A stretch of DNA of 64,000 nt from Pseudomaricurvus alkylphenolicus (GTDB lineage: Bacteria; Pseudomonadota; Gammaproteobacteria; Pseudomonadales; Cellvibrionaceae): positions 124,001 through 188,000 of the forward strand of contig NZ_JAAQPI010000004.1 in assembly GCF_011683955.1 (NCBI RefSeq). Direction: 5' to 3'. Of this stretch, positions 1,351-58,236 are shown one piece after another. Numbering within the stretch: the stretch's first letter is position 1; each line of letters starts with the position of its first letter. The position numbers were made by a program, and so were the translations under genes. The notes below the pieces were generated by a model. It saw only the letters and a program-made list of their open reading frames with translations, searched no databases and was not told the origin of the DNA.

Positions 1351-1407
1351 CTGCTCCTGTTGCCTATTAACGATGAGGCACAAATCTACGAGAACTGCAG
1401 TGCAAAA

Positions 1408-1549
1408 GGTGGCTGGGGGTTTCGTTTTGGAGCATCAAAAGCCAGCGCTGAAGGAGCAAAAAAGACCAACGTTTTCTGTTGGGCTTTTTTGTAACTGAAG
1501 GCACCCTGGAAGGGCGCGGCTTAGCTCCAAAACGGAACCCCCAGCCGCC
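1408..1549 (+). repeat. Structured dispersed repeat, copy A (divergent)
   Basis: A 26-bp stem closes the element: 1408-1433 pairs with 1524-1549, broken only by two G.U positions. An inner hairpin (AAAAAAGaCCAAC / GTTGGgCTTTTTT, loop GTTTTCT) lies at 1458-1490, and a CCC/GGG hairpin at about 1504-1514. Copies B (29054) and C (58010) keep the same architecture with different stem sequences. The G.U pairs occur only if the plus strand is the RNA. It lies between the convergent AraC and SDR genes. I do not recognise it as a named family. Confidence 0.75.
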
Positions 1550-1642
1550 GCTTGAGGCACCCAACCAAAAGCCACTTTCCACAAAGCCTGCGAACTCCAT
1601 GATAGTTTCGGTCGGAGCTCATCCTTCAAGAACAGCGTCTAA

Positions 1643-1668
1643 TAAAAAAACCCGCACAAAGGCGGGCA
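1643..1668 (-). terminator. Rho-independent terminator for the SDR gene
   Basis: Read on the minus strand, a GCCCGC/GCGGGT hairpin with loop CTTTGT is followed by seven T. It lies about 30 bases past the stop codon of the SDR gene. Confidence 0.85.
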
Positions 1669-1697
1669 TAAACGAGTGCAGGAAAAACCTGCCAGGG

Positions 1698-2510
1698 TCA
1701 ACTAACCTTCGATTCCTCAACAGCCCGCATCATCGCCACCATACAAGACTCCGTCGCCTCAGGCCCAAGCGCCGAATAGCCCCCATCCACAGGAATCTCC
1801 GCCCCGGTAATAAACCGGGCGTGATCCGAACACAAAAACAACACCGCATCAGCCACCTCCTCAGCCTCAACCACACGCCCCAAAGGCTGATAATTCGACA
1901 CCACCTCATCGGCAATCTGACGATTATTCTCCGTCAAACCCGCCACAGGCACACTCCAGGTAATCCCCGCCAAAATCGTATTCACCGTCACCCGATCCTT
2001 AGCCAGATCCAACGCCATATTCCGCGTCAACTGATGAATCGCCGCCTTAGACACCGGATAGGTCCAACGCCCCGCCTGAGCAATGGCCGCAGAAATACTG
2101 CCAAAATTTACAACCGCCCCACCGGTACTCTTAGCCAGATACGGCTGCGCCTCATTCACCAACAACGCATGACCAAACACATTCGTATTGAACGTATCCA
2201 CCCACTGCTGCCGACTCGACGCCATGCCATCATCGTCATACAACGCCGCCACATTCACCACAAAATCAATCTGCCCGAACTCCTCCAGCGCACGCCCCAC
2301 CAGCGCCTTGATATCCTCATCCCGCTGCAAATCCGTGCGCTGAAAAACCGCGCCTGCGCCCAAATCCGACGCCAAGGCCTCACCCACATCCGTACTGCGG
2401 GCTGCAATCACCACCTTGGTACCCGCGCCATACAACGCCCGCGTCACCGCCTCACCAATACTCGCCGCACCACCCGTAACAATCGCTACCTTATCCTGCA
2501 AACCTTTCAT
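1698..2510 (-). CDS. SDR family oxidoreductase
   Basis: A classical short-chain dehydrogenase/reductase of about 270 residues. It has a cofactor glycine motif (TGGAASIG), an NVAAL segment in place of NNAG, the YPVSK catalytic Tyr-Lys pair and a C-terminal PVDGGYSALG. An in-frame start 14 codons upstream exists, but the internal ATG at 2510 sits after GAGGAACAGACG and begins directly with the Rossmann fold, so I prefer it. It follows the flavin reductase by 25 bases on the same strand and is probably co-transcribed. SDR plus flavin reductase pairs occur in indole and indoleacetate degradation clusters (iacE/iacG, iifA/iifD). The substrate here is unproven. Confidence 0.88.
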   Translation of the reverse strand: MKGLQDKVAIVTGGAASIGEAVTRALYGAGTKVVIAARSTDVGEALASDLGAGAVFQRTDLQRDEDIKALVGRALEEFGQIDFVVNVAALYDDDGMASSRQQWVDTFNTNVFGHALLVNEAQPYLAKSTGGAVVNFGSISAAIAQAGRWTYPVSKAAIHQLTRNMALDLAKDRVTVNTILAGITWSVPVAGLTENNRQIADEVVSNYQPLGRVVEAEEVADAVLFLCSDHARFITGAEIPVDGGYSALGPEATESCMVAMMRAVEESKVS

Positions 2511-2535
2511 CGTCTGTTCCTCGTTATTAATAAAA

Positions 2536-3498
2536 TCATTCCGTCCAGGCAATAATGCGTCGCAAATAACGCTTAAACATCATTGCCTCATCGGCAGTAA
2601 ACACCCCGAGCGCCTCGGCCTCATTTGTCTTGGCCACCTTCAACAGCGGCTCCAACTTCTGCCGGCCAGTGTCCGTCAACTTGATGCGGGTTGTATCCCC
2701 ATGATGCTCCCGCGACAACAACCCCGCGGCACACAACCCACGCAACTTATCGTTAACCACCTCCTCGGAAAGAATCGAATTGTGCATCAACTCCTTCAGG
2801 CTGCAGCCATCCTTGCCACCCAGAGAGGCCATCACCCGATACTCGTTCTCATCCAACCCCTGCGAATGCAACACACTGGTGAGCTTCGTCATCAACTGAT
2901 CAAAACTGCGTCCGACCAAATAATGCAGATAATCATCCACAAAACCCGCATCCGTTCCCAAGTCATCCGGCAACTGCTCATTGCAGGGATGAAAACTGGA
3001 CACCACATACTTGCCCCGATGAAACATCAATCCCGAGCGACCCGTCGTGTGAAAACGCTTGACCTCACCCACAATAATAATGTGGTCACCGCCCTCATAC
3101 TGATACTTGGTCTCACACTCGAACTGTGCCGCACAACCCTTCAATAGCGGCGCATCACCCAATCCCAATTCATAGTCAATACCGGAGAACTTATCCTCCT
3201 GGGGCCGTGCAAAGTGATTCGACAGAGAGACCTGGTCCGCGGCCAATACATTCACCGCGAAGAACTCCGCCTTTTCATAGGCCTCCAGACTGCGGGCACG
3301 CTTGTCAATACTCCATAGAACCAGAGGGGGTTCCAGGGAAACAGAATTAAAACTGCTGGCGGTTGTACCAACGTACTGATTACTGCCTTCTCCAGCGTCA
3401 TCCCTGGCAGTAACAATAGTTACGCCTGTGGCAAAATTGCCCAATGCATTGCGAAATGCCATGGGATCGATTGTCGTTTCCGTCAGTGCTTGATTCAT
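2536..3498 (-). CDS. Flavin reductase with C-terminal MarR-like domain
   Basis: The first about 170 residues are a flavin reductase domain of the HpaC/C1 type (FRNALGNFATGVTIVT, SSFNSVSLEPPLVLWSI, GDHIIIVGEV). Residues about 205-315 form a winged-helix MarR-like module (ENEYRVMASLGGKDGCSLKEL, LSREHHGDTTRIKLTDTGR). The same architecture is known in the reductase component of Acinetobacter p-hydroxyphenylacetate hydroxylase, where the MarR-like part senses the aromatic substrate. It would supply reduced FMN/FAD to a two-component oxygenase, but no such oxygenase is encoded nearby. The start at 3498 has an AAGGTGA ribosome site; a longer ORF start lies 12 codons upstream. Confidence 0.88.
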   Translation of the reverse strand: MNQALTETTIDPMAFRNALGNFATGVTIVTARDDAGEGSNQYVGTTASSFNSVSLEPPLVLWSIDKRARSLEAYEKAEFFAVNVLAADQVSLSNHFARPQEDKFSGIDYELGLGDAPLLKGCAAQFECETKYQYEGGDHIIIVGEVKRFHTTGRSGLMFHRGKYVVSSFHPCNEQLPDDLGTDAGFVDDYLHYLVGRSFDQLMTKLTSVLHSQGLDENEYRVMASLGGKDGCSLKELMHNSILSEEVVNDKLRGLCAAGLLSREHHGDTTRIKLTDTGRQKLEPLLKVAKTNEAEALGVFTADEAMMFKRYLRRIIAWTE

Positions 3499-3833
3499 CG
3501 CCGTCACCTTTTGCCTCTCTTTGATGCCAACCATCGTTGCTCTTAGATGGTCGCTTATCGCTGTTATGGATTTCAGGATTTATGCTAGAGACTTAGTCCC
3601 AATGGGAATATTCAGAGAAGGTCGCGCCTATGCAACTTGCGCAGTTTCCGAGATCCAGTAACCGGAAACTTATGCACCTGGATCAATCAATCGCGACTCG
3701 GCAGCAGTTACTGAATAGGCCCTGCAATTCATGCATAGATCTCACCCGGAATCCGTTTCACACTGAACCTACAAAAAATCAATAATTCGAAAAATCTATA
3801 AATCCAAAAATCAGCCCACTGGAGGCATGAACA
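3499..3833. other. Divergent promoter region, no recognisable sites
   Basis: These 335 bases separate the flavin reductase (minus) from the TonB receptor (plus) and must hold both promoters. I found neither the TTACACGTAA nor the TAATCCCATTA motif here, and no convincing small ORF or hairpin. Confidence 0.6.
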
Positions 3834-6225: not shown

Positions 6226-6355
6226 TATCTCTGGGATCTTTCGTTATCAGAGGAGTGTTTGGGAATTAATCTTCAGCAAAGTGCCAGGAGCGGAAGTTCA
6301 TAATCCTGGTTCAGGGCACCATGGGCGTTCGATGATGTCCGCAACGGCCGCACGA

Positions 6356-6543
6356 CGTAGGGTGGATTAGAAGCGCTTTGCGCTTCGTAATCCACCGATC
6401 CGCCGAAGGTTTAAATTGGCGGCGGCCGTGTATAAATCACCTGTTGCAGGAACATTCAAGGGTGTTAAAAACCGGGCCGCAGCCAACGAACATCTCCGGC
6501 AGAACCGGCGGATTACGGCGCAAGCGCCTAATCCGCCCTACGC
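6356..6543. repeat. Pair of inverted short palindromic (REP-like) elements
   Basis: The left unit (6356-6396) is GTAGGGTGGATTA, a small hairpin (GAAGCGC/GCGCTTC) and TAATCCACC. The right unit (6507-6543) is GGCGGATTAC, GGCGCAAGCGCC and TAATCCGCCCTACG in opposite orientation. Together they form a BIME-like or MITE-like block. Related single units occur at 40431 and 45801. The rest of the 6226-6660 gap shows nothing else. Confidence 0.6.
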
Positions 6544-6667
6544 ATAAACAACGCCATCAGAGTACCAATCCTGCGAATTTCTAAGACCGGTTATGGCACA
6601 CAAGAGACATTGCCCAATAACTCCAGCAGCGGTATCATCATCCACCAGTGTTAAGTCGCAAAACGAA

Positions 6668-29053: not shown

Positions 29054-29283
29054 TACCTAGGTCTAAAGGGTGGCTGGGTGTTCGTTGGAGGGGCATTTCA
29101 AGCGAACGCCGAAGGAGTCAAGGAGACAAGCGTTTTTTGCTTGGCTCATTGGGGACGGAGGGAAGCCTGGAGGGCCGGTAGCGTGCCCCTCCAACGGATA
29201 CCCAGCCGCCCGTTGTGGCACAGAATCATCAGCCCCTTGCGTCCTGTCAGCAAAGAAAAGACCTGGGAAAAACACCTATATCT
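29054..29283 (+). repeat. Structured dispersed repeat, copy B
   Basis: Nearly identical to copy C (58010) over about 225 bases and related to copy A (1408) in the core. A 27-bp stem (29069-29095 with 29184-29210, three G.U pairs in the plus-strand RNA) encloses the hairpin GAGaCAAGC/GCTTGgCTC with loop GTTTTTT. The tail after 29210 (CGTTGTGGCAC and onward) is shared with copy C. It lies between the tryptophanase leader and the monooxygenase terminator. No ORF or transposase is associated. Confidence 0.85.
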
Positions 29284-58009: not shown

Positions 58010-58236
58010 TACCTCGATCTAAAAGGTGGCTGGGTGTTCGTTGGAGGGGCATTTCAAGCGAACGCCGAAGGAGTCAATGAGACAAGCGTTTTCTGCTTGG
58101 CTCATTGGGGACTGAGGGAAGCCTGGAGGGCCGGTAGCGTCCCTCCAACGGACACCCAGCCGCCCGTTGTGGCACAAAATCATCAGCCCCTTTCGTCCTA
58201 TCCGCAAAGAAAAGACCTGAGAAAGACACCTAATTC
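58010..58236 (+). repeat. Structured dispersed repeat, copy C
   Basis: Close sister of copy B (29054). The outer stem (58025-58050 with about 58139-58164) is retained. The inner hairpin CAATGAGaCAAGC/GCTTGgCTCATTG with loop GTTTTCT is longer and better paired than in B. Orientation is again plus. It lies between the DnaJ-domain gene and a convergent SDR gene. Confidence 0.85.

What the first reader, a model, noticed from the sequence alone, without database searches (positions are those of the whole stretch)
1408..1549. A dispersed, strongly structured repeat present three times with compensatory base changes
Copies at 1408-1549, 29054-29283 and 58010-58236 share a 26-27 bp closing stem, an inner hairpin with an A/G mismatch and the loop GTTTTCT/GTTTTTT, and a CC(C/T)GGA-type hairpin. 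Copy A differs from B and C in the stem sequences, yet pairing is kept on both sides (for example CCAAC/GTTGG versus CAAGC/GCTTG). The wobble pairs are G.U only if the plus strand is the RNA, and all three copies have that orientation. This points to selection on an RNA (or single-stranded DNA) fold. It could be an undescribed ncRNA family or a non-autonomous mobile element moved in trans.
Basis: seen in the sequence. Interest (0 to 1): 0.82.

Follow-up and report, generated by a model that had tools for sequence, protein, structure and literature searches.

The report
Dispersed folding repeats that skew neighbours
A bacterial genome carries about sixty scattered copies of a short DNA element that is kept foldable into one elaborate hairpin, mostly points the same way relative to DNA replication, and has a one-sided base-composition trace in the DNA beside it; the family matches no RNA family in the library searched here.

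Summary
The three window copies belong to a family with 61 full-length copies (plus remnants) in this 8.9 Mb genome and relatives in other genomes of the order (14 of 390 searched, this one included). A 142-nt fold is conserved: 26-bp closing stem, branched core, inner hairpin with a conserved A·G mismatch, GGA-loop hairpin. Of 44 pairs, 33 (own genome) and 42 (across genera) show two-sided compensatory changes. Pairs are G·T 140 times and A·C once, so the plus strand is the folding strand. No Rfam match.

New here: (1) 59 of 62 copies agree with their contig's orientation, which follows replication strand. (2) DNA 3' of the element carries a strong strand asymmetry (GC skew -0.26 against -0.06 at control sites), decaying over about 2 kb, not seen 5' of it, independent of gene direction. 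(3) Five same-genus genomes gave no match.

Best reading: a non-autonomous, structure-defined mobile repeat working through single-stranded DNA, REP/REPIN-like but not a REPIN. No partner enzyme was found, insertion rests on few sites, the asymmetry is strong only in this genome, and an RNA function is not excluded.

The parts
1408..1549 (+). copy A: whole 142-nt folded core
   Evidence: 146 bits with model R1
1408..1433 (+). copy A: 5' arm of closing stem P1
1524..1549 (+). copy A: 3' arm of closing stem P1
1456..1492 (+). copy A: inner hairpin with the conserved A.G mismatch and T-rich loop
1504..1514 (+). copy A: hairpin with GGA loop (CCCT-GGA-AGGG)
1374..1381 (+). copy A: 5' direct repeat TGAGGCAC, 34 nt before P1
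   Evidence: 34 of 51 non-B copies within 1 mismatch in the 5' window; shuffled mean 0.5
1553..1560 (+). copy A: 3' direct repeat TGAGGCAC, 3 nt after P1
   Evidence: 45 of 51 within 1 mismatch in the 3' window; shuffled mean 0.3
1550..3500 (+). 3' flank of copy A with strong strand asymmetry (GC skew about -0.36 at 100-1500 nt)
   Evidence: family-wide
29069..29210 (+). copy B: folded core (B subfamily, whose longer flanks are also shared)
29214..29221 (+). copy B: 3' motif TGTGGCAC
   Evidence: 12 of 12 B copies within 1 mismatch
58025..58164 (+). copy C: folded core, 2 nt shorter (B subfamily)
58168..58175 (+). copy C: 3' motif TGTGGCAC

Best explanation
A family of non-autonomous interspersed elements (unit of about 180 bp from one TGAGGCAC repeat to the other) whose working part is one DNA strand folded into a 142-nt branched hairpin. 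SHOWN: conserved fold with extensive covariation; plus strand favoured by wobble pairs; many dispersed, mostly intergenic copies; orientation tied to replication strand; a strand asymmetry confined to the 3' flank over about 2 kb in this genome. INFERRED: an enzyme acting in trans recognises the folded plus strand, cuts next to it (the TGAGGCAC direct repeats are candidate sites) and moves it into single-stranded DNA at the fork, which would give the orientation bias; and repeated cutting or unwinding at the 3' foot leaves the minus strand of the 3' flank single-stranded, where it accumulates changes seen on the plus strand as fewer G and T and more C and A. The partner enzyme is not identified.
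For: Copies: 61 full-length plus 1 partial and 2 interior-deleted in a table of 64. Fold: A1, 33 of 44 pairs with two-sided changes; A4 from several genera, 42 of 44, 95.2% of cells paired, 0 of 500 shuffles reach the covariation score (A4 was fitted to the model and leans to it). Plus strand. Orientation: in contigs with two or more tabulated copies 59 of 62 agree with the contig (C2 7/7, C45 7/7, C66 5/5, C8 5/5, C34 9/11, C55 4/5; C11, 2 and 2, switches where its GC skew switches). 3'-flank asymmetry: right flank -0.261, left -0.091, right more negative in 60 of 64; none of 20000 context-matched control draws reaches either the right mean or the difference; same for + genes, - genes and non-coding DNA; near baseline by about 2.2 kb in nine copies with longer context. 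Three copies lying against the replication trend still have a negative right flank at 60-700 nt (-0.22, -0.22, -0.08). The orthologue of the gene 3' of copy A has -0.16 in three relatives and -0.416 here. Gaps between matching genes without the element: 348 bp here against 86 in one relative, 573 against about 130, 417 against about 130.
Against: No linked nuclease: Y1 transposase genes are found in 19 of 24 genomes searched, bearers or not, are missing in the bearers G134, G331, G350 and G369, and none of the 30 fetched Y1 loci contains the element. Asymmetry is strong only in this genome: g10 right -0.09, left -0.06; f4 right -0.08 (5 loci), f47 -0.04, others about 0. The AraC gene 5' of copy A is also more skewed here (-0.199) than in four relatives (-0.064 to -0.10), and left-flank rows exceed their orthologues too (12 of 19 negative, mean -0.083, against 9 of 10, mean -0.181 on the right; overlapping ORFs, few loci). 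One element-free relative has a 279-bp gap at the copy A site, nearly as long as ours. Two window copies are weak: B right 0.012, C -0.143. Seven of 64 copies lie inside a predicted ORF. No excision product or new insertion was seen. The direct repeats look shared by all copies, not copy-specific (by eye), so they are not ordinary target duplications. In g10 many copies sit at orthologous sites, so recent movement is not evident there. RNA and ssDNA folding cannot be told apart by these data.
Confidence: 0.45

Rival explanations
1. A non-coding RNA family: each copy is transcribed from the plus strand and the folded RNA is selected (protein-binding or regulatory RNA, or the RNA of a retro-mobile element).
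For: Covariation and G.T over A.C fit RNA. In 9 of 10 g10 orthologue comparisons the inner core is more conserved than the 150 bp on both sides (two of the ten alignments are partly misplaced).
Against: Flanking genes show no consistent arrangement: of 63 classified copies 26 convergent, 30 tandem, 7 divergent, so it is not a 5' leader. By eye no promoter-like -10 hexamer and no T-run after the stem. Transcription rightward from the element would expose the plus strand, the opposite of the asymmetry seen (inference). No match in most relatives. Expression could not be tested.
Confidence: 0.3
2. An ordinary palindromic repeat: replication template switches keep the arms complementary, and hairpins on the lagging-strand template cause gaps, so neither fold nor flank effect reflects a dedicated system.
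For: Arms can change much faster than the core yet stay paired (L108 against L109 and L110: arms 58-62%, core 88-89%); interior-deleted copies occur.
Against: Template switching predicts perfect pairs, not a 140:1 wobble asymmetry. The branched core and unpaired residues are conserved across genera. The flank effect follows the element's orientation, not the fork's, in three discordant copies. Ordinary intergenic sites lack it.
Confidence: 0.13
3. A MITE: P1 arms are terminal inverted repeats of a DDE transposon.
For: Paired ~26-bp ends, dispersed copies, flanking direct repeats.
Against: The arms differ strongly between copies and genera while staying paired, whereas terminal repeats need a fixed sequence; direct repeats look shared by the copies, not copy-specific (by eye).
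Confidence: 0.05

Closest known systems
REP / REPIN repeats moved by RAYT (TnpA-REP) transposases
   Same: Dispersed, extragenic, non-autonomous, hairpin-forming repeats with compensatory changes (passages of PMC3116915); here also pairs and arrays of alternating orientation in some genomes.
   Different: REPINs have two highly conserved inverted 16-mers at the ends and a less conserved spacer; here the ends vary and the centre is conserved. No linked RAYT found.
IS200/IS605 (IS608, ISDra2) and other HUH-nuclease elements
   Same: A foldable strand and a tie to replication strand.
   Different: The folding strand lies on the C-rich strand, by convention the leading-strand template, whereas the abstract of PMC6006769 describes targeting of the lagging-strand template; no transposase in the element; no element in the Y1 loci seen.
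Integron attC sites
   Same: Imperfect hairpins used as folded single strands (from recall); an integron integrase exists in this genome.
   Different: Copies are dispersed, not arrayed; the sequence next to the integrase shows other, ordinary-looking sites (label from recall); the integrase also occurs over cut-off in same-genus genomes without the element.

Membership tests
REPIN/RAYT | two conserved inverted REP ends with a variable spacer | tested here: not met
   ends variable, centre conserved (definition from passages)
REPIN/RAYT | linked RAYT gene | tested here: inconclusive
   no R1 match in 30 Y1 loci of about 3 kb; not every Y1 match had a locus
REPIN/RAYT | dispersed multicopy extragenic repeat forming a hairpin | tested here: met
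   (7 of 64 inside a predicted ORF)
IS200/IS605 | insertion into lagging-strand template | tested here: inconclusive
   strong strand bias, but the folding strand is on the other template by skew convention; origin not checked by gene
Integron attC | located as cassette ends in an array beside intI | tested here: not met
   dispersed over 16 contigs
MITE | sequence-conserved terminal inverted repeats | tested here: not met
   P1 arms differ between copies
MITE | copy-specific target-site duplication | tested here: inconclusive
   flanking TGAGGCAC repeats are shared by copies; no formal test for other short duplications was made
Known Rfam RNA family | covariance-model match at gathering score | tested here: not met
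   window and 7 loci from other genomes: 0 matches; two matches below gathering to eukaryotic miRNA models in 3 own loci, taken as chance
Retron or group II intron derivative | linked reverse transcriptase | not tested

The most novel reading that the evidence does not exclude
The element is a dispersed, oriented single-strand origin or nick site: a host or mobile enzyme reads the folded plus strand, cuts at its 3' foot and unwinds or resects outward, exposing up to about 2 kb of the minus strand again and again. Dozens of such sites would then act as local, one-directional mutators of whatever gene lies on their 3' side.
Probability: 0.3. Interest if true: 0.9.

Novelty: new variant of a known kind. 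Interest (0 to 1): 0.72.

Why it matters
If the reading holds, a repeat family is recognised by shape rather than by end sequence, which would widen what counts as a REP-like mobile element. The one-sided asymmetry would be a genomic trace of where DNA is chronically single-stranded, so it makes the question of how such repeats move directly testable in one strain, and it suggests that a repeat can bias the evolution of its neighbour genes.

Tried and rejected
Riboswitch or 5' leader: gene context inconsistent. Sigma-70 promoter from TTGAGG plus a 17-nt spacer: the -10 position reads CGCGGT, TACAGA and the like (by eye). Small 5' hairpin P0: 24 of 51 copies against 19.5 expected (stems of 5 or more: 12 against 6.5), not convincing. 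Intrastrand triplex (TM/BoxC) repeats: abstract and passages of PMC4666352; different consensus, no strand bias reported there. Integron attC. Gene orientation as cause of the skew: rejected by stratification and matched controls. Local-flank skew as proof of replication bias (59 of 64 negative): partly circular, because the right flank is itself altered; I rely on contig orientation and the 20-kb samples of C11, C34 and C55 (17 of 20 concordant; one C11 sample near the switch, at 1010 kb, is slightly off-sign). GTAG-type palindromes as a second test: 13 sites classed far, right more negative in 10, p 0.09, one of them in truth beside copy C; inconclusive (a first pattern found 5 far sites, 5 of 5; a stricter filter found 2, both near copies). 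G015 hits (100 nt, E 1.6e-4 or worse) resemble each other more than this family and were not counted.

Literature: seven searches listed no paper that by title or abstract start describes this family; the library lacks most subscription papers. Seen: PMC4666352 abstract and passages; PMC6006769 abstract and outline; PMC3116915 passages; the rest listings only.

Rows dropped: A1 was drawn from 44 copies that a loop motif picked out of 54 non-duplicate loci, reduced to 41 distinct cores, of which L018 (with an insertion) was left out. A copy split over C16 and C4 and interior-deleted B remnants on C3 and C55 are not in the 64. Opposite-strand shadows were ignored. The control samples contain some copies; those exclude motif-bearing neighbourhoods.

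Full report
WHAT IS THERE. The three copies are real. Copy A is 1408-1549; the matching cores of B and C are 29069-29210 and 58025-58164. blastn with B and with A gave 49 and 40 matches in the window's own genome, overlapping sets that include short opposite-strand matches. A covariance model from 40 distinct cores (R1) gave 61 full-length matches on one strand, several partial or interior-deleted ones, and weak shadows on the opposite strand. I tabulated 64 copies: 61 full-length, one partial, two with the interior deleted. The genome has 8.88 Mb in 70 contigs. The nearest named relatives of a window gene (AraC type, about 70% identity) are Pseudoteredinibacter isoporae and relatives, so the host is probably in Cellvibrionaceae (inference).

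THE FOLD. Within the genome 44 pairs are predicted and 33 have at least one sequence with both sides changed. On 52 copies from several genera 42 of 44 do, 95.2% of cells are paired, and 0 of 500 shuffles reach the observed covariation score 0.899 (shuffled mean 0.206); sliding the partner by 1-3 columns drops the score to 0.11-0.19. That alignment was fitted to R1 and leans towards its structure. The architecture is a stem of 26 bp or more with variable sequence, an asymmetric loop, a short stem opening into an inner hairpin whose base carries GANNGA on both sides (by eye), a conserved A.G mismatch in that hairpin, and a hairpin with a GGA loop. Unlike a REPIN, the centre is conserved and the arms vary: at one orthologous site in genus g10 the arms are 58-62% identical but the inner part 88-89%.

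WHICH STRAND. In A1 there are 1600 Watson-Crick, 140 G.T, 1 A.C and 17 other cells; in the other genomes' rows of A4 87 G.T and 10 A.C. The plus strand folds better than the minus strand as RNA in 58 of 61 full-length own copies and 49 of 55 others, and as DNA for all three window copies.

DISTRIBUTION. R1 matched 4 of 38 relatives, namely this genome, G014, G027 and weakly G015, 5 of 144 in the family, 14 of 390 in the order, 9 of 142 genera, and 2 of 369 in the class, this genome and one outside the order, G605; a broader model R2 gave the same two. All these counts include this genome; stricter filters were used above 40 genomes. The five other genomes of its genus gave no match. One copy as query gave no match in phages or plasmids. 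Rfam: none at gathering score in the window and 7 loci.

MOBILITY OR INHERITANCE. Three sites were compared with genomes or loci without the element. Copy A: 348 bp between AraC and the next gene here, 86 bp in L262 but 279 bp in L264; in L263 another gene lies between and in L265 the partner is not in the locus. C66:176815: 573 against about 130 bp; C8:119787: 417 against about 130 bp in G001. So insertion here is likely but rests on few sites. In genus g10, 9 of 11 G014 loci in hand match a locus of a sister genome; in one of these (L106/L118) the flanks match but the elements differ and face opposite ways; the two without a match (L103, L107) were compared only with the loci in hand. Tandem copies with a 187-base period, one with mismatched arms, occur in G137. 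So copies can be old and vertically kept. Inverted neighbours and alternating arrays occur in other genomes. Of 12 B-type copies, 5 have a GTAG-type palindrome within 200 bp on the left, 5 on the right, 2 on both (REP label from recall).

ORIENTATION. In contigs with two or more tabulated copies, 59 of 62 agree with the contig (C11 judged by its skew switch). In C11, C34 and C55, whose skew was sampled in 20-kb pieces, 17 of 20 have the plus strand on the C-rich strand. By the usual convention this is the leading-strand template; the origin was not located by gene.

THE ONE-SIDED ASYMMETRY. Pooled over 64 copies, GC skew on the plus strand is -0.23 to -0.31 within 500 bases 3' of the element and -0.03 to -0.11 on the 5' side. 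For nine copies with longer context (eight non-B, one of them interior-deleted, and copy C) it falls from -0.27 to about -0.09 by 2.25 kb, while the left side stays at -0.05 to -0.12. At 0-700 bases it is -0.264 in plus-strand ORFs, -0.279 in minus-strand ORFs and -0.201 outside, against -0.035, -0.073 and -0.058 in controls. With 208 control intergenic sites, mean right skew is -0.058; elements have -0.261, 51 of 64 lie below the 5th control percentile, right is more negative than left in 60 of 64, and 0 of 20000 context-matched draws reach the observed mean or difference. Third codon positions show fewer G and T and more C and A on the plus strand (counts). Three copies that run against the trend of their contig keep a negative right flank at 60-700 nt (-0.22, -0.22, -0.08), but not at 700-1500 nt (0.02, -0.02, 0.09); with three cases, one beside an oppositely oriented copy, this is suggestive only. 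Twelve B copies plus three near-B copies, more alike and presumably younger, are weaker than the rest (-0.146 against -0.222, p 0.008), though some are strong. Among the window's own copies A is strong (right -0.357, left -0.200), C moderate (-0.143, left 0.062), and B has none (0.012, left 0.139). The orthologue of the gene 3' of copy A has -0.16 in three relatives and -0.416 here; the gene 5' of it has -0.064 to -0.10 in four relatives and -0.199 here. Across 10 right-flank ORF rows (5 loci, overlapping ORFs included) the mean difference from the compared relative is -0.181, 9 negative; across 19 left rows it is -0.083, 12 negative. In g10 the right mean is -0.09 (20 of 26 negative, orthologous copies included), f4 -0.08 (4 of 5), f47 -0.04 (6 of 9), others about zero, so the effect is strong only in this genome.

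INTERPRETATION. A process that repeatedly leaves the minus strand single-stranded on the 3' side would give this pattern by deamination of that strand (general knowledge, from recall). Because the sign seems to follow the element, fork direction alone does not explain it. Cutting at the 3' foot followed by unwinding or resection of the plus strand would. That is the geometry of a folded nick site, hence the reading as a REP-like element acting on ssDNA. The enzyme is unknown: Y1 transposases were found in 19 of 24 genomes searched, bearers or not, were missing in four bearers, and had no element in 30 loci. Selection on an RNA, or a target preference for already skewed DNA, remains possible.

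NOVELTY. As a kind, dispersed hairpin repeats are known. A conserved branched core with freely varying, co-varying arms and a one-sided asymmetry are not described in the abstracts, passages and listings I saw.

Noticed in passing
window 6273-6612: Another dispersed repeat of about 330 bp with some 37 further matches at 88-98% identity listed in the same genome (candidates capped at 40); its right end resembles the right end of the B-type flanks by eye.
   Followed up: partly
G000 C16 end and C4 start (L015 1400-1759, L017 1-400): One B-type copy appears split by an insertion, with a short stretch present on both sides, where two contigs end.
   Followed up: partly
G000 C68:5267-6211 (L176, L182): Integron integrase well above cut-off with ordinary-looking recombination sites nearby (label from recall); unrelated to the finding.
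   Followed up: partly
L106 and L118 around 1501-1643: Orthologous site in two g10 genomes holding different elements in opposite orientation, one with what looks like a leftover arm of the other.
   Followed up: partly
L126 7213-7729: Three tandem copies, period 187; the middle one carries one arm like each neighbour, so its stem pairs less well.
   Followed up: no
3' flanks of several copies, e.g. L054, L050, L022: Tandem duplications of about 40-60 bp just 3' of the hairpin, some containing the TGAGGCAC motif (by eye).
   Followed up: no
G000 GTAG-type palindromes, 13 sites classed far: Weak hint of the same one-sided skew (10 of 13), not significant.
   Followed up: partly
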